From Neotabrizicola shimadae (lineage in GTDB: Bacteria; Pseudomonadota; Alphaproteobacteria; Rhodobacterales; Rhodobacteraceae): a stretch of DNA of 64,000 bases. The stretch is taken from NCBI RefSeq assembly GCF_019623905.1, contig NZ_CP069370.1, positions 2,604,001 to 2,668,000 on the forward strand. Reading direction: 5' to 3'. The notes under the pieces are model-generated. The model did no database searches. It was not told where the DNA came from and was given only the letters and a program-made list of their open reading frames with translations. Shown piece after piece: positions 3,377 through 10,586 of this stretch. How positions within the stretch are numbered: the stretch's first letter is position 1; each line of letters starts with the position of its first letter. Position numbers and translations under genes: made by a program.

Positions 3377-3552
3377 GAATGGTCCTCCGGTCATGCCCGC
3401 TTCTGGCAGGCCGCATCGCGCCCGGTCAAGGGCGCTGTCAGAGGGCACCTGCCCGCCGCCGCCAATGCCGCAGCGCGGCGTGATCGCGCTTTCCAGACCG
3501 CGCCACCCCGGTTATAAACCGCTGAAATGCTGTGCAGGAAAGGCCCCAACCG

Positions 3553-4379
<827 letters not shown>

Positions 4380-4383
<4 letters not shown>

Positions 4384-5222
4384 CCCCGCCCATCTTCCGC
4401 AGCGTCGAAAGCCTGCGCGACACCGTCCGCGCCTGGAAATCCGCCGGCCAGACCGTGGGCGTCGTCCCCACCATGGGCGCGCTGCACGAAGGCCACCTCT
4501 CGCTCGCCCGCCGCGCCCGCACCGAATGCGACCGGGTCATCACCACGATCTTCGTGAACCCCAAGCAGTTCAACAACCCCGAAGACCTGAAGAAATACCC
4601 CCGGACCGAGGAAGCCGACGCCGCCCTCCTCGCCACCGTGCCGGTGGACGCCATCTTCGCCCCCCCGGTGGACGAGGTCTATCCCGAAGGCTTCGGCACC
4701 AATGTCAGCGTTTCCGGCGTGTCCGAACCGCTGGAGGGCAAGATGCGCCCCGGCCATTTCGACGGCGTGGCCACGGTGGTGACCAAGCTCTTCGGCATGA
4801 CGCTCGCCGACCGCGGCTATTTCGGCCAGAAAGACTGGCAGCAACTGCAAGTCGTGCTGAAACTTGTGCGCGACCTGAACCTGCCCGTCCAGATCGTCGG
4901 CTGCGAGACGATCCGCGATCCCGACGGCCTCGCCATGTCCTCGCGCAATGTCCGCCTCACGCCCGAAGGCCGGGCCAAGGCGCCCGTGCTCTACGCCGCG
5001 CTCTCCGCCGCCACCGCCGAAATCCGCGCGGGCCTGCCCGACCGCATGGCCATCCGCGAGGCGGCCGAGCAGATCCGCGCCGCGGGCTTCGACCGCGTGG
5101 AGTATATCGAGCTGCGCGACGCCGCCACGCTCATCCCCTCCGACGACCCCACCCGCCCCCGCCGGATGCTCGCCGCCGCCTGGCTTGACGGCGTGCGCCT
5201 GATCGACAACATCCCGGTCTAG
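4380..5222 (+). CDS. panC: Pantoate-beta-alanine ligase (pantothenate synthetase)
   Basis: ATP-dependent condensation of pantoate with beta-alanine, the last step of pantothenate synthesis. 280 residues. Signature sequences seen: [14 protein letters not shown] (HIGH-like nucleotide-binding element), [19 protein letters not shown] and AMSSRN. The ATG overlaps the panB stop (ATGA at 4380-4383). The gene ends in a strong hairpin before the convergent restriction-modification gene. Confidence 0.97.
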
Positions 5223-5230
5223 CGCCCCTT

Positions 5231-5250
5231 GCCCCGGCGAAAGCCGGGGC
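5231..5250. terminator. Hairpin between panC and the Type IIL RM gene
   Basis: A perfect 8-bp stem GCCCCGGC/GCCGGGGC with a GAAA tetraloop, 8 bases after the panC stop. It sits between two convergent genes and could stop transcription from both sides, although no T-run follows. Confidence 0.6.
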
Positions 5251-5256
5251 CTCCGC

Positions 5257-8025
5257 CTACCGCCCCGCGCGCCGCCTCACGCGGGGCGGGGCCGGCAGCA
5301 GCGGCGCCGCCATCGCCTCATACAGCGCAAACAGATGCTCCACCCGCTCGCGGTCGCCCGAAAACGGCTTGGCCCGATACAGCCGGTCCACCGCCCGGTC
5401 GAGCCGCCCATGAGCGGCCCGCAGATCGGCCGGCATCAGGTCAGGGTCGTAAAGGTCGGCCAAGGTCGCGCCCGGATGGGCGGCACGGGCATCCAGCACC
5501 GCCTGCGCCAGCGGATCGAGTTTCGCCAGGTCCGCGCCGGGTGGCAGGGGGAAGGTGTTGTAGACGAGGCCAATTGTATAGCGAAAGTCGCTCTTGAGTC
5601 GTCCGCCTATGTGACGAAGCCAAGACATGTGCATGGCCGATGTTAGGAGTGCGAACGTCGACAATTCTGCATCTGGGACAATCTGGACAAGGTTGCTGGG
5701 AATGACCGGAGGTTCTAGCCAACCTATAGGCGCATACGGCCGTCTCTCAGAGCTGACGGATGGAAGCACCAAGAACGATTTGGTTGGAACCGTGCTTACT
5801 TCATACCTTGTTGGATAATCGGCAAGCCGAACTGTTGCCGCTTTCCTGCTCTTACTTCTCATTCTTCGGACTTGCAAAATCCGCTCTCTTACGAGTGGCA
5901 TGTTCGCAAGTTCATTAGGTGAGGCATCTTCAAGATGCAAAATAAAGCGATCAATTCCGTTAATGAACTCTCGTGAGCCGATAAATGGCCGAAAAAATCG
6001 CGCGGCTCCCGGTTCCATAGCTTCAAAGTCTGCGCGCTCCTTTGCGCTAAAAATGTAATGATCCCCAACGACTGGTTTGGTCCCCATTCTAGCTTCTGGA
6101 AGATGGTTGATAGGTTTCGGCACGTCCTGCACGACGAGATGTGGGTTCCCAAGCAGTGACGCATCGAAAAGATAGGGCGATATCATGCGGTGAACGGTCT
6201 CGATTGGATCACCGTCGAGGTCATCATAACTGAATAGGCGGCAAGAAGACCGGGCGTTGTCCCTCCTGTCGAGTCCAATGATTACCACATGGACATGCGC
6301 TTTGCCGCGCGCATCAGAACCCCAAGCGAATGTTCTATGTGCAAACGCTATTTCCAATCCATATCGGTCGAACAACACTGGCCAGAGTAGGGCGACTTGC
6401 TCACCCTGAGTGATTGAGTTCGTAGCAACGAAGGAAATCCGAGTCCTACCTTGAACGTATGCACCGGCTTTGAGGAACCACGCGCCCACGTAGTCAAGTG
6501 GCGTGCCAGTCGCCCCCTTGGGGTTCATCAGCTCGCGCATTTGCTCTCTCTGCTTAGGCGACTGATAACTCTGCCCCACAAACGGCGGGTTCCCCAGCAC
6601 AAATGAACAGCGCTCTGGCGGCAGAACCTCGGCCCAATCCACCTCCAGCGCATCGCCGTAGCGGATGGTTGGCGCCTTCTTCAAGGGGATGCGCGGGTAA
6701 TAGCCGCCAAAGGCCGTGCTCAGGGCCAGGTTCATCAAGTGGTCCATCATCCACAGCGCGGTTTCCGCGATGCGGGCGGGAAACTCGCCGATCTCGATGC
6801 CGTAGAACTGGTCCACATCCACCCGGCTCAGCACCGATGCATCCAGCTGCAACTGGCCGTCGCTGCGCAGCTCCAGCAGAAGCTCAAGCTCCAGTTGCCG
6901 GATTTCCCGATAGGTGATGACAAGAAAGTTGCCGCAGCCGCAGGCCGGGTCAAAGAAGGTCAGGCTCGCCAGTTTGTCGTGAAACGCCCGCAGCGCCTGT
7001 TGCCGCCCGGTGCGCCGGGCACGGATCGCCGCGAATTCGGCCCGCAGATCATCCATGAACAGCGGCCCGATCAGCTTCAGGATGTTCTTCTCGGTCGTGT
7101 AATGCGCGCCCGCCGCGCGGCGCTCCTTCGCATCCATCACGCTCTGGAACAGGCTGCCAAAGATAGCGGGTGAAATCGGCGTCCAGTCGAACCGGCAGGC
7201 GTTCAGCAGGGCGGTGCGCATCCCCTCGTCGAAGTCGGGGGGCGGGAAGTATTCCTTGAACAGATGCCCGTTCACATAGGGAAACTGTCGCAAGGCATCG
7301 CTCAGGGTGGTGGACCGGGCATCCTCTGCCGTGTCCAGCACTTCGAACAGCTTGTTCAGTTGCGGGCCAAGGCTGGCGGGATCGGCGATCCCCTCCAGCC
7401 AATCGTGCAGGATGTCCTTCGGCTCGAAGATGCCGGTATCATCCGCGAACAGGCAGAACACGATCCGCGTCAGGAACACTTCCAGCTTGTGCCCGGTATA
7501 GCCTGATGCCGCCAGCTTGTCGTGCAGATGGCCCACCAGTTCGGCGGCCTTGATGTTCACCGGGTCCTGATCCTTGAACCGCGCCGTCTGGCGGCCAAGG
7601 ATGAAACCGAACTTGTCGATGTGCTTCGGCAGGTCGCGCAGGGCGAAGGCCACTTCCTCGCCCGTGGTCAGGTCGGTCAGCATCCATGTCTGAAAGTCGC
7701 AGACCAGAAGCCGCTTGGGCATTTCCGCGTCGCTCAGGCGGTGGGTGTAGTCCATCGCCTGGATCTTCGCGCCCAGCAGGTCATGACCGCGCGACTTCTG
7801 CTCCACAAGCAATTCGCCGGGCCAGAACAGGTCGATCCGGCCGGGCGTCCCGCTCAGTTTGGCGACCGATTTCTCGTAGACGGCAACGCGCTTTCGGTCG
7901 ACCCCGAAGATGGCAAAGAACTCGTTATAGAAGCTCTGGGTCTCGCCGATCTCGTAATGGGCGTCCTTCCAGTCCTTCGCGAATACAGCCGCACGCGCCC
8001 GGATTTCGGGCCAACTCAGTCTCAT
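5257..8025 (-). CDS. MmeI-family Type IIL restriction-modification enzyme (nuclease, methyltransferase and specificity in one chain)
   Basis: 922 residues, close to MmeI (about 919). The N-terminal PD-ExK nuclease has Asp65, then nine residues, then Glu75-Gln76-Lys77, the arrangement known in MmeI. A helical linker precedes an N6-adenine methyltransferase core with SAM motif DPACGCGNF and catalytic NPPF near residue 478. The C-terminal third holds the target-recognition domain. The family methylates one DNA strand for protection and cuts about 20 bases from the site, so no separate endonuclease or S subunit is needed. ATG at 8025 follows GAGGA. The part encoding residues ~488-815 (bases 5580-6560) is much more AT-rich than either end: rows I counted are 40-48% GC against about 62% in the N-terminal half. 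This suggests an exchanged specificity segment. Confidence 0.88.
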   Translation of the reverse strand: MRLSWPEIRARAAVFAKDWKDAHYEIGETQSFYNEFFAIFGVDRKRVAVYEKSVAKLSGTPGRIDLFWPGELLVEQKSRGHDLLGAKIQAMDYTHRLSDAEMPKRLLVCDFQTWMLTDLTTGEEVAFALRDLPKHIDKFGFILGRQTARFKDQDPVNIKAAELVGHLHDKLAASGYTGHKLEVFLTRIVFCLFADDTGIFEPKDILHDWLEGIADPASLGPQLNKLFEVLDTAEDARSTTLSDALRQFPYVNGHLFKEYFPPPDFDEGMRTALLNACRFDWTPISPAIFGSLFQSVMDAKERRAAGAHYTTEKNILKLIGPLFMDDLRAEFAAIRARRTGRQQALRAFHDKLASLTFFDPACGCGNFLVITYREIRQLELELLLELRSDGQLQLDASVLSRVDVDQFYGIEIGEFPARIAETALWMMDHLMNLALSTAFGGYYPRIPLKKAPTIRYGDALEVDWAEVLPPERCSFVLGNPPFVGQSYQSPKQREQMRELMNPKGATGTPLDYVGAWFLKAGAYVQGRTRISFVATNSITQGEQVALLWPVLFDRYGLEIAFAHRTFAWGSDARGKAHVHVVIIGLDRRDNARSSCRLFSYDDLDGDPIETVHRMISPYLFDASLLGNPHLVVQDVPKPINHLPEARMGTKPVVGDHYIFSAKERADFEAMEPGAARFFRPFIGSREFINGIDRFILHLEDASPNELANMPLVRERILQVRRMRSKSRKAATVRLADYPTRYEVSTVPTKSFLVLPSVSSERRPYAPIGWLEPPVIPSNLVQIVPDAELSTFALLTSAMHMSWLRHIGGRLKSDFRYTIGLVYNTFPLPPGADLAKLDPLAQAVLDARAAHPGATLADLYDPDLMPADLRAAHGRLDRAVDRLYRAKPFSGDRERVEHLFALYEAMAAPLLPAPPRVRRRAGR

Positions 8026-8103
8026 GGGAAATCCTCACAATCACCGGGGGCGACTGTGGGGCAGGCACGGGGCATGGGTCAAGCGGTGTGGCCCTCGGAC
8101 AAG

Positions 8104-8177
8104 TGTTAAGTCCAAGTTAATTCGGGCCGGCAAGTCCTTGATTTTGCTGGGTCCGGGCAAGCGTCCGAGCTCGGACG
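8104..8177 (-). repeat. Palindrome-headed intergenic repeat, copy 1
   Basis: Read on the minus strand, the 16-bp palindrome CGTCCGAGCTCGGACG (8177-8162) is followed about 40 bases later by TTAACTTGGACTTAACA (8120-8104). The same two blocks in the same order occur at 46857 and, with a degraded second block, at 57905. This copy lies between mcl1 and the Type IIL gene in the orientation of mcl1. The linker is only loosely conserved. Confidence 0.7.
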
Positions 8178-8197
8178 GCCAGGCCCGGAAAACACAG

Positions 8198-8222
8198 CGC
8201 CCCAGGGTCAGACCCTGGGGCG
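8198..8222. other. Strong hairpin in the mcl1-RM intergenic region
   Basis: A perfect 11-bp stem CGCCCCAGGGT/ACCCTGGGGCG with a 3-base loop, 136 bases downstream of the mcl1 stop. There is no T-tract. It may terminate mcl1 transcription or protect its 3' end. The 332-base gap 8026-8357 holds only this hairpin and repeat copy 1; I see no gene in it. Confidence 0.5.
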
Positions 8223-8357
8223 TGCGTCCTCCCCTCATGCCGCCTCGGGCCTCCCCCCCTTGGCAGCCGGGTATCTCGTCGCCGGATTTCCCGGCGGTGT
8301 GCCCAATTGCCCCGCATCGAGCCGAAAGTCAACGATTCTACGCCGCCCTGCGCCGCG

Positions 8358-9320
8358 TCACCCCTTGCCATCCAGAAGATCGGCCTGCCGCACGATCCCC
8401 TCCGCCTGCTTGATCGAGGCGATGTCCACCAGCCGGCCCTTGTAGACCGTGGCTCCCTCGCCCCGCGCCTTGGCCTCTGCCATGGCCGCCAGGATCTCCC
8501 GCGCCTCGGCCACCGCCGCCGCAGAGGGCGTGAAGACCTCGTTGGCCAGCGCCACCTGCCTGGGATGGATCGCCCACTTGCCCACCATCCCCAGCGTCGC
8601 CGACCGCAGCGCCTGCGCCCGGAACCCCTCGTCATCGCTGAAGTCGCCGAAGGGCCCGTCCACCGGCAACAGCCCATGCGTCCGGCAAGCCGCAACGATG
8701 GCCGCCTGCGCCCAGTGCCAGGGATCGGACCAGTACTTCGCCCCCTCCCGAAGCATGTAGTAGTTCTCCTGCGTCCCCCCGATGCCGGTGGTCGCCATCC
8801 CCATGCTGGCCGCAAAGTCCGCCGCCCCCAGGCTCATCGCCTGCATCCGTGGCGAGGCCGCCGCGATCTCCTCGACATGGGAGATGCCGGCGGCCGACTC
8901 GATGATGACCTCGAACCCGATCGGCTTCGCCCGCCCCTTCGCCCGCTCCACCGCCGTGACCAAGGCGTCGACGGCATAGATGTCCGCCGCGCAGCCGACC
9001 TTGGGGATCATGATCTGGTCCAGCCGGTCTCCCGCCTGCTCCAGGAGGTCCACCACATCCCGGTACCACCAGGGCGTATCCAGCCCGTTGATCCGGACCG
9101 ACAAGGTCTTGCTGCCCCAGTCCACGTCGGACACCGCCTTGATGACATTCGCCCGCGCCTCGGCCTTGTCGGTCGGCGCCACTGAATCCTCAAGGTCGAG
9201 GTTGATCACATCCGCCTCAGAGGCCGCCATCTTGGCAAAAAGAGCGGGGCGCGAGCCCGGGCCGAACAGCTGGCAGCGGTTCGGGCGGGCCGGAGCGGGG
9301 GGCTGAAGGCGGAAGCTCAT
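8358..9320 (-). CDS. mcl1: L-malyl-CoA/beta-methylmalyl-CoA lyase (CitE-like)
   Basis: HpcH/HpaI-citrate lyase beta superfamily TIM barrel, 320 residues. It closely matches the Rhodobacter sphaeroides Mcl1 sequence from memory, starting MSFRLQP and including NRCQLFGPGSRPALF, INLDLEDSV, IMIPKVG, FEVIIESAAG and GKWAIHP. Mcl1 cleaves methylmalyl-CoA to glyoxylate and propionyl-CoA in the ethylmalonyl-CoA pathway of acetate assimilation, and also condenses acetyl-CoA with glyoxylate to malyl-CoA. Glu and Asp of the ESAAG and DLED motifs bind Mg. The start at 9320 has GAGGA upstream and matches the family; an extension to 9389 does not. Confidence 0.95.
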   Translation of the reverse strand: MSFRLQPPAPARPNRCQLFGPGSRPALFAKMAASEADVINLDLEDSVAPTDKAEARANVIKAVSDVDWGSKTLSVRINGLDTPWWYRDVVDLLEQAGDRLDQIMIPKVGCAADIYAVDALVTAVERAKGRAKPIGFEVIIESAAGISHVEEIAAASPRMQAMSLGAADFAASMGMATTGIGGTQENYYMLREGAKYWSDPWHWAQAAIVAACRTHGLLPVDGPFGDFSDDEGFRAQALRSATLGMVGKWAIHPRQVALANEVFTPSAAAVAEAREILAAMAEAKARGEGATVYKGRLVDIASIKQAEGIVRQADLLDGKG

Positions 9321-9413
9321 GGAATCCTCGTGCAAGGAAGTTTCAATGTGAAGCAGCCCTGCGATAGATTGTTGCGCGACGGGCTTCAAGCCCCTTTTCG
9401 CATCTGCAGCAAT

Positions 9414-9830
9414 CTACAGCGCACGCACCCGGTTGTTGCGCGGCCCGTGTTCCAGTTCCACCAGCCCGAGCAGTTCCATCACCGGCGTCACATAGTTGGC
9501 GAAACGCCCGCGATAGCCCTTGCGCAGACCGTAGTAGCCGCCGACCGGGTTTGCAGCGTCGCGCGCCCAGGCCTCGACCGAGCCTTCAGCCACGGGCTTG
9601 CCCTCGTCAGCATTGCCAAGCGCCACCCAGTCGCCGCGCGCCTTCAGCATGGCGTGGCAATCCTCCAGCCCGCGCCACTGATAGGACAGTTGCGTTGTGC
9701 CGACCTGCACCACCAGCTGCGGCGGCGCGACGCTCTCATCCTTCCAGGCCTGAAAGTCCGATGTCTGCGGCGGTGTCTTCACCAGCCAGGGGTCGTCCTT
9801 CGTACCGCTGCCATAGGTCACCATCGCCAT
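9414..9830 (-). CDS. Small conserved protein paired with a YafY/WYL regulator (DUF6855-like)
   Basis: 138 residues, soluble, rich in Trp, Gly and Asp, with no signal peptide or membrane segment. Motifs such as YGSGTKDDPW at the N terminus and PRNNRVRAL at the C terminus recall a small family I know as DUF6855; that identification is from memory. ATG 9830 has an AAAGGGCGG element upstream. It is divergent from the regulator at 9913 with an 82-base shared promoter containing two inverted repeats, so it is the likely target of that regulator. Biochemical role unknown. Confidence 0.7.
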   Translation of the reverse strand: MAMVTYGSGTKDDPWLVKTPPQTSDFQAWKDESVAPPQLVVQVGTTQLSYQWRGLEDCHAMLKARGDWVALGNADEGKPVAEGSVEAWARDAANPVGGYYGLRKGYRGRFANYVTPVMELLGLVELEHGPRNNRVRAL

Positions 9831-9881
9831 GTTCCGCCCTTTCCCGTTGCGCTGGATGCCAGAGCCTAGCAAGGGTATCGT

Positions 9882-9914
9882 GACACCTTCTGTCCTGATT
9901 GGAAGTGCTCCAAT
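9882..9914. promoter_or_regulatory. Two inverted repeats in the divergent promoter (candidate WYL-regulator operator)
   Basis: GACA-CCTTC-TGTC (9882-9894) and ATTGGA-AGTGC-TCCAAT (9898-9914) lie side by side in the 82-base gap between the two divergent genes. The second overlaps the regulator's start codon. TGACA-N5-TGTC resembles operators of some YafY-type regulators (inference). Confidence 0.5.
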
Positions 9915-10530
9915 GCGCGCCGCCCGTCTGCTGCATATGCTGCTGATCCTGCAGAACCGCGGCCGGCAGAGCGTGGGCCAGCTGGCGGCCGAACTGGAAG
10001 TGTCACGCCGCACCGTCCAGCGCGACCTTGACGCGCTGACCCAGGCCGGGCTGCCGGTGATAACCTGGCGCGGCGCGCAGGGCGGGGTGGAACTGGGGTT
10101 CGACTACCGCACACGGCTGACCGGGCTGGACGCCAGCGAAGCCGAGGCAATGGGGATTCTGCTGTCGCTGGCGCCGCGCCTGTTCGCCGATCTTGGCCTG
10201 GCTGCGGCGCTGGCCCGCGCCCAGGCCAAGATGCGTGAAGCCTTTCCCGATCAGACGCGGGCCCTCATCATCCGGGCACAGGCGCGGTTCCCTGTCGTGC
10301 CCGACCCTCCCGGCCCGGCCGATCCGCGGCGCGCGGCGCTGGCCGAAGCCGTTCGCACCGGCCGGGTGGTACGCCTGCAGGCCCGGTCACTCCTGCCGGT
10401 GACGGTGCATCCGGTGACGCTTGAACTGGCCCGCGAGGGCTGGACGCTGCACTGCGCCAGGACCGGGCACGGCTGGCCGGAAGCCGACTGGGGCGATGTG
10501 AACATATCCGCGCGGCGCTTCTCGGACTGA
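9913..10530 (+). CDS. DeoR/YafY-type HTH transcriptional regulator with short WYL-like region
   Basis: 205 residues. An N-terminal winged HTH (residues 1-60: RAARLLHMLLILQNRG, then SRRTVQRDLDALTQAGLPV) is followed by a linker typical of YafY proteins (GVELGFDYRTRLTGLDASEAEA). The C-terminal WYL-type ligand domain is short (the family is usually 230-320 residues) and lacks a clear WYL tripeptide. It probably represses its divergent neighbour and itself through the repeats at 9882-9914. ATG 9913 was chosen over an earlier in-frame start at 9829, which would run back across the divergent gene's start. Confidence 0.8.
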   Translation: MRAARLLHMLLILQNRGRQSVGQLAAELEVSRRTVQRDLDALTQAGLPVITWRGAQGGVELGFDYRTRLTGLDASEAEAMGILLSLAPRLFADLGLAAALARAQAKMREAFPDQTRALIIRAQARFPVVPDPPGPADPRRAALAEAVRTGRVVRLQARSLLPVTVHPVTLELAREGWTLHCARTGHGWPEADWGDVNISARRFSD

Positions 10531-10586
10531 ACGGGGATTGCGCTTGCCCGCCGGGACCGCCAGTTTCGCCGGGAAGGAGAGCGCCG

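What the first reader, a model, noticed from the sequence alone, without database searches (positions are those of the whole stretch)
5257..8025. Type IIL restriction-modification gene with an AT-rich island exactly over the specificity half
Seen: the rows I counted in the region fall to about 40-48% GC (5881-6000), against about 62% in the N-terminal part (7021-7080) and higher at the 3' end. The low-GC stretch runs from just after the NPPF motif to just before the C-terminal helical region. Known: in MmeI-family enzymes this part carries the target-recognition domain, and specificity changes by swapping it. Inference: a recombinational replacement of the recognition domain inside a resident gene.
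Basis: partly seen in the sequence, partly recalled or inferred. Interest (0 to 1): 0.7.

Follow-up and report, generated by a model that had tools for sequence, protein, structure and literature searches.

The report
Restriction enzyme with swapped-in recognition half
A bacterial anti-phage enzyme of the known MmeI (Type IIL) kind carries a foreign-looking, AT-rich block where it reads its DNA target, which fits the idea that such enzymes change target by trading that block; the enzyme type is known, but the scar is unusually clear here and a milder form recurs in many relatives.

Summary
Window 5257-8025(-) is a full-length, apparently intact MmeI-family (Type IIL) restriction-modification gene. 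The AT-rich island is real. Codons ~505-818 (window ~5572-6474; left edge uncertain, up to 6573) are AT-rich: residues 485-828 have GC3 0.51 where 0.82 is expected from host codon usage (z -14.9), while both flanks match the host (z +0.7). The island covers the last third of the methyltransferase domain plus the target-recognition domain and ends three codons after the last base-contact residue. The chassis belongs to a Rhodobacterales clade. Relatives with the same chassis but another recognition half (L047, L033; L039 against L043) switch just after NPPF and back around VYNTFP, so cassette exchange does occur. Trees alone do not prove that this copy's cassette is the imported one, and no donor was found. 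Two corrections: (1) a milder GC3 drop of this half is family-wide and one-sided (131 genes: 51 below z -3, none above +3), so part of the dip is not specific; (2) the gene is not 'resident': in a same-genus genome unrelated DNA fills the panC-citE gap, and the non-homologous block is the gene itself. Predicted target: CC(C)GAG, A methylated (inference).

The parts
5257..8025 (-). MmeI-family (Type IIL) restriction-modification gene, 922 aa
   Evidence: open frame; MmeI 5hr4 over residues 1-921, E 2.2e-268; five MmeI Pfam domains; PADLOC REase_MTase_IIG 1111 bits
5572..6474 (-). AT-rich island, codons ~518-818 (left edge between codons 485 and 522, i.e. window 6573 to 6462)
   Evidence: GC3 change-points, codon-usage segment, GC 0.506
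7507..7995 (-). MmeI_N domain (PD-(D/E)XK nuclease)
   Evidence: Pfam PF20464, residues 11-173
7795..7833 (-). nuclease motif D65...E75-Q-K77 (MmeI D70, E80, K82)
   Evidence: alignment to MmeI
7258..7491 (-). MmeI_hel helical spacer
   Evidence: Pfam PF20465, residues 179-256
6235..7008 (-). gamma-class N6-adenine methyltransferase domain
   Evidence: Pfam PF20473, residues 340-597
6925..6951 (-). SAM-binding motif DPACGCGNF, residues 359-367
   Evidence: sequence; invariant in alignment
6580..6591 (-). catalytic NPPF motif, residues 479-482; left exchange joint lies just after it
   Evidence: position; identity breaks right after NPPFxG in L039/L043 and WIN/L047
5542..6144 (-). target-recognition domain (MmeI_TRD)
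   Evidence: Pfam PF20466, residues 628-828
5689..5694 (-). N778-L779, aligned with MmeI N773 and A774 (positions 3 and 4 of the target)
   Evidence: alignment, rules in PMC4833311
5581..5595 (-). K811, D813, R815, aligned with MmeI E806, R808, R810 (positions 6 and 4 of the target)
   Evidence: alignment; K-D pair specifies G
5548..5565 (-). conserved VYNTFP block, residues 821-826; right exchange joint
   Evidence: codon alignments, change-point at 818
5302..5523 (-). MmeI_C helical domain
   Evidence: Pfam PF20467, residues 835-908
5230..8032 (.). block without homology to same-genus genome G001; it is the gene with a few bases on each side
   Evidence: blastn homology 3452-5229 and 8033-9411 only

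Best explanation
The gene makes a single-chain Type IIL restriction-modification enzyme: one polypeptide binds an asymmetric site of about 6 bp, methylates one adenine in it, and cuts unmodified DNA about two helical turns away (known for MmeI; inferred here). The gene is a mosaic. A Rhodobacterales-type chassis (nuclease, spacer, first part of the methyltransferase, C-terminal helices) carries a recognition cassette of about 300-340 codons from an AT-richer source, joined near the conserved NPPF and VYNTFP blocks, most simply by homologous recombination. The same recognition domain directs cutting and methylation, so such a swap changes both together and leaves a working enzyme. Shown: the composition breaks, their positions, and the same exchange unit in independent relatives. 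Inferred: that this copy's cassette is the imported part, the direction of transfer, the AT-richness of the donor, the recombination mechanism, and activity.
For: Flanks fit host codon usage (z +0.7), recognition half does not (z -14.9), breaks highly significant. Chassis in a supported 7-row Rhodobacterales set, recognition half not. L047 and L033 share 64-82% of chassis and C-domain residues but 39-50% of the recognition half. L039/L043: 94.7% DNA identity in flanks, 61.4% inside, edges 466 and 820; WIN/L047 edges 486 and 823; both switch right after NPPFxG. L043, the divergent member of its pair, also shows the GC3 dip, -0.224 against -0.085 in L039. Where chassis and cassette were co-inherited the TRD diverges little or no faster than the chassis (L003/L076, L070/L071), while WIN/L031 differ 0.24 in chassis, 0.21 in C domain, 0.52 in TRD-N and 0.37 in TRD-C.
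Against: The AU test does not reject WIN with L031 (p 0.30) or with L031, L056 and L051 (p 0.28) in the recognition half. Protein distance of the distal MTase part WIN/L031 (0.26) equals that of the chassis (0.24), so import of that part rests on composition. No donor above about 61-63% identity. Part of the dip is a family trend. The left composition edge (506-522) lies somewhat inside the joint seen in relatives (about 484).
Confidence: 0.72

Rival explanations
1. No recent swap in this gene: the recognition half of MmeI-family genes is intrinsically AT-shifted at silent sites (fast turnover, relaxed codon selection, AT-biased mutation, or selection for it), and this gene is the extreme of that trend.
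For: Of 131 family genes, 51 have a recognition half with GC3 z below -3 and none above +3, 61 and 0 after amino-acid correction; 59 of 70 thinned genes are negative at fourfold sites, p 4.5e-9.
Against: This gene is the most extreme of 37 close relatives and first or tied first of 131; its silent sites switch abruptly at 818; sister genes L039/L043 differ in the dip exactly where L043 has a different cassette; several genes have no dip (L002, L034, L062, L070, L071).
Confidence: 0.18
2. The gene arrived in this lineage as a finished mosaic (or as one piece) by insertion between panC and the citE-like gene; the cassette was joined to the chassis in another organism, so the composition break records an older event elsewhere.
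For: The gene is the block missing from G001, which has other DNA there; chassis relatives at other loci (no panC; one weak citE match); family members on mobilizable plasmids and viral contigs.
Against: None direct. This is a variant of the main explanation in timing and place, not in kind; confidence overlaps with it.
Confidence: 0.5
3. Assembly chimera: the low-GC stretch is foreign sequence joined by error.
For: Abrupt composition breaks within one ORF.
Against: One uninterrupted 922-codon frame aligning end to end with MmeI, catalytic and SAM motifs kept, in a 5-contig, 99.9% complete genome.
Confidence: 0.02

Closest known systems
MmeI, Type IIL R-M enzyme (PDB 5HR4; PMC4833311)
   Same: Same length, same five domains in order, catalytic residues kept, contact positions alignable.
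   Different: Different contact residues (K-D instead of E-R, L for A774, K for A723), so a different target is predicted; mosaic composition.
NmeAIII (GCCGAG 20/18), MmeI family (PMC3874165)
   Same: Predicted to share the GAG end of the target.
   Different: Position 1 predicted C rather than G. No sequence comparison with NmeAIII was made here.
modA phasevarion methyltransferases, Type III (PMC3311624)
   Same: Central recognition domain exchanged en bloc between conserved 5' and 3' parts, with lower GC than both flanks in modA12.
   Different: Type III Mod protein, phase-variable, in Neisseria and Haemophilus; here a single-chain restriction-methylation enzyme.
Type I and Type IIG S subunits with TRD exchange and domain movement (PMC3077401, PMC3983042)
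   Same: Specificity changes by recombination in conserved sequence that flanks a TRD.
   Different: Separate S subunit with two TRDs and repeats; here a single chain, one TRD, and only one match to the enzyme in the genome.
BREX PglX
   Same: Related methyltransferase and recognition fold; weak hit to a BREX PglX model.
   Different: Score 18.5 against a cut-off of 900; no BREX genes were seen next to it in the part of the window examined.

Membership tests
Type IIL (MmeI family) | Single chain with nuclease, helical spacer, gamma-class N6-adenine MTase, TRD and C-terminal helices in this order | tested here: met
   all five Pfam domains; end-to-end match to MmeI
Type IIL (MmeI family) | Intact nuclease and methyltransferase motifs | tested here: met
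   D70, E80, K82 equivalents; DPACGCGNF and NPPF
Type IIL (MmeI family) | Contact positions that can be read with the known residue-base rules | tested here: met
   positions 1, 2, 4 and 6 readable, position 3 (S751/N773) not a described pair
Type IIL (MmeI family) | Methylates one strand only and cuts about 20/18 from an asymmetric site | not testable with these tools
   needs a methylome and a cleavage assay
Recombinational exchange of a recognition domain (as in Type I S, Type III mod) | Relatives with the same flanks but a different recognition part | tested here: met
   L047, L033 against WIN; L039/L043; L036/L042
Recombinational exchange of a recognition domain (as in Type I S, Type III mod) | This gene's own recognition part has a different history from its flanks | tested here: inconclusive
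   composition says yes; AU tests with nearest chassis relatives p 0.28-0.30
Recombinational exchange of a recognition domain (as in Type I S, Type III mod) | An identifiable donor | tested here: not met
   best recognition-half matches about 57-63%; the collections are only samples
Phase-variable or shuffling specificity system within a genome | A second TRD copy or silent cassette in the genome | tested here: not met
   one match to the whole enzyme and one to the recognition half in the genome

The most novel reading that the evidence does not exclude
The recognition halves of MmeI-family genes behave as a separate gene pool. They move between chassis at two preferred joints (after NPPF; around VYNTFP) and carry a lasting, one-directional AT shift at silent sites in hosts of very different GC. 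Two readings remain open: they circulate mainly through AT-richer mobile carriers, or some selection or mutation bias keeps this half AT-rich.
Probability: 0.35. Interest if true: 0.6.

Novelty: new member of a known kind. Interest (0 to 1): 0.42.

Why it matters
In the literature read here, MmeI-family specificity is described mostly as diverging by changes of paired contact residues, with domain exchange noted for Type IIG enzymes more broadly. The relatives collected here show whole-cassette exchange at recurrent joints within single-chain Type IIL genes, which would let a bacterium change its restriction target and its self-protection in one step. It gives a prediction, CC(C)GAG, that one methylome run would test. 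The one-sided AT shift of this half across the family is an unexplained regularity worth its own study.

Tried and rejected
Donor search with the recognition half alone in viral contigs, plasmids and 385 genomes of the class: nothing above about 61%. Tree test of WIN with its nearest chassis relatives in the recognition half: not decisive. Regression to a mean GC3, expected if cassettes came from random donors: not seen as positive shifts in AT-rich genes; the deviation is one-sided. Avoidance of the predicted site in 400 kb of host DNA: CCCGAG observed/expected 0.90, uninformative. Rfam and tRNA scans for an insertion target at the locus: none. The two original MmeI-family papers of 2009 are not held. 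The automatic breakpoint for WIN/L031 (524-526) only caught an insertion in L031 and was discarded. Structure prediction was not run: the protein aligns end to end with the solved MmeI structure.

Full report
WHAT IS THERE. Window 5257-8025 on the minus strand is one open frame of 922 codons. It matches MmeI (PDB 5hr4) from residue 1 to 921 with E 2e-268, hits all five MmeI Pfam domains above their cut-offs and scores 1111 bits against a PADLOC Type IIG restriction enzyme-methyltransferase model. The nuclease residues D-E-K, the SAM motif DPACGCGNF and NPPF are present, so the enzyme looks intact. The neighbours are panC (ends 5222) and an HpcH/HpaI aldolase (citE-like) gene (8358-9389).

THE ISLAND. 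GC is 0.62 in the N-terminal part (6475-8025), 0.51 at 5572-6474 and 0.73 at 5257-5571; no other 900-base stretch of the 64 kb window is as low. Host codon usage was estimated from 314 long ORFs in 464 kb of the same genome. Residues 1-484 (z +0.7) and the C-terminal domain (z +0.7) look like the host, whereas residues 485-828 have GC3 0.51 where 0.82 is expected for their amino acids (z -14.9); none of 449 comparable windows has so low a z. GC3 change-points are at codons 506-522 and 818. A codon-usage scan gives 518-818, with starts back to 485 only slightly worse. The right edge is sharp: it falls three codons after the residue aligned with MmeI R810, the last base-contacting residue, and before the conserved VYNTFP block. 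The island covers the last third of the methyltransferase domain as well as the TRD (5542-6144).

COMPARISON WITH RELATIVES. I gathered 36 close full-length relatives from GTDB genomes, plasmids and relatives of the host. With residues 1-484, this gene falls in a seven-row Rhodobacterales set (support 99*); with residues 485-828 it has no supported place. L047 and L033 share 64-82% of chassis and C-domain residues with this gene but only 39-50% of the recognition half. The acidobacterial pair L039/L043 is 94.7% identical in DNA over its flanks and 61.4% inside, with best-fit edges at residues 466 and 820; L036/L042 differ in the TRD alone (642-790). Codon alignments show the switch directly after NPPFxG in both L039/L043 and WIN/L047. 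In the L039/L043 pair, L043 also has the stronger GC3 dip (-0.22 against -0.085). So cassette exchange between conserved blocks happens in this family and can leave the mark seen in the window. Where two genes inherited chassis and cassette together, the TRD diverged about as much as the chassis or moderately more (L003/L076; L070/L071).

WHAT IS NOT PROVEN. The AU test rejects the chassis clade as a clade in the recognition half (p 0.0008), but this rests largely on L047 and L033; WIN with L031, L056 and L051 (p 0.28) or with L031 (p 0.30) is not rejected. No donor was found; the best recognition-half matches are about 57-63% identical. The claim that this gene's own cassette is the immigrant therefore rests on composition, sharp edges near the family's exchange joints, and TRD distances.

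A FAMILY-WIDE TREND. That is partly so. In 131 family genes from cells, plasmids and viral contigs, the recognition half has GC3 lower by 0.083 on average; 51 have z below -3 and none above +3, while a split within the chassis gives 6 of 130 beyond 3 either way. Correcting for amino acids makes it 61 and 0. At fourfold sites the drop is 0.11-0.21 in the TRD of cellular and viral genes, and 59 of 70 thinned genes are negative (p 4.5e-9); the C-terminal domain, as control, averages -0.038. Genes with GC-rich chassis average -0.125, so roughly two fifths of the dip of -0.32 here may be family background; the rest is specific. The gene ranks first of 37 close relatives, and first or tied first of 131 after correction. 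Cassettes from random donors should also give positive shifts in AT-rich genes; they do not. The cause is open.

THE LOCUS. In the one same-genus genome held (G001), DNA homology runs to window 5229 and resumes at 8033; in between, G001 has about 3.3 kb of unrelated DNA of about 50% GC. The block absent from G001 is thus this gene with a few bases on each side. The gene is cargo of this lineage rather than a proven resident of the genus, and the swap may predate its arrival. Only one match to the enzyme exists in the genome, so an internal store of spare cassettes is unlikely.

PREDICTED TARGET (inference from PMC4833311, and the alignment). Position 6: K-D pair gives G. Position 5: the methylated A. 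Position 4: R810 with bulky L774 gives G. Position 3: N773 with S751 is not a described pair; C is likeliest. Position 2: K645 suggests C. Position 1: K723 suggests C. Hence CC(C)GAG, with position 3 weakest and positions 1-2 only correlative. The eight members of the chassis clade including L032 have eight different sets of contact residues, so they probably read different targets.

PRECEDENTS. Lower GC in a central recognition domain than in both flanks, read as transfer, is described for modA12 of Type III systems (PMC3311624). TRD exchange by recombination in conserved flanks is described for Type I and Type IIG S subunits (PMC3077401; PMC3983042). A review states that MmeI-family specificities diverged widely, by changes in paired contact residues, and cites domain exchange for Type IIG more broadly (PMC4081073). 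I found no paper in the held library that reports natural whole-cassette exchange or the AT shift in the MmeI family, but the original 2009 papers are not held. The gene is a new member of a known kind; the exchange joints and the one-sided AT shift are the parts that may be new.

Noticed in passing
window 5230-8032; L102:3911-7220: The gap between panC and the citE-like gene is filled by unrelated DNA in the two genomes of the genus (this R-M gene here; about 3.3 kb of AT-rich ORFs without Pfam hits in G001), so it may be a preferred insertion site.
   Followed up: partly
131 MmeI-family loci: The recognition half has lower GC at silent sites than the rest of the gene across the family, in one direction only.
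   Followed up: partly
window 9411-10558: About 1.1 kb with a DUF6855 gene and an HTH_11 regulator gene, without homology to the same-genus genome G001 between two homologous stretches.
   Followed up: no
L031, near window-protein residue 525: An in-frame insertion of about 48 residues in the distal MTase part of the L031 relative.
   Followed up: no
L002/L052 (G025), L061, L063: Relatives with a premature stop or split frames, that is, probably broken copies.
   Followed up: no
G000 sample L112-L131 (400 kb): The palindromes ATCGAT and CTCGAG occur at 0.17 and 0.18 of the Markov expectation, the lowest of all hexamers tested.
   Followed up: no
Viral-contig scan: 164 candidate stretches on IMG/VR viral contigs encode MmeI-family relatives, so phages or prophages (or mis-binned host DNA) carry many such genes and could spread cassettes.
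   Followed up: partly
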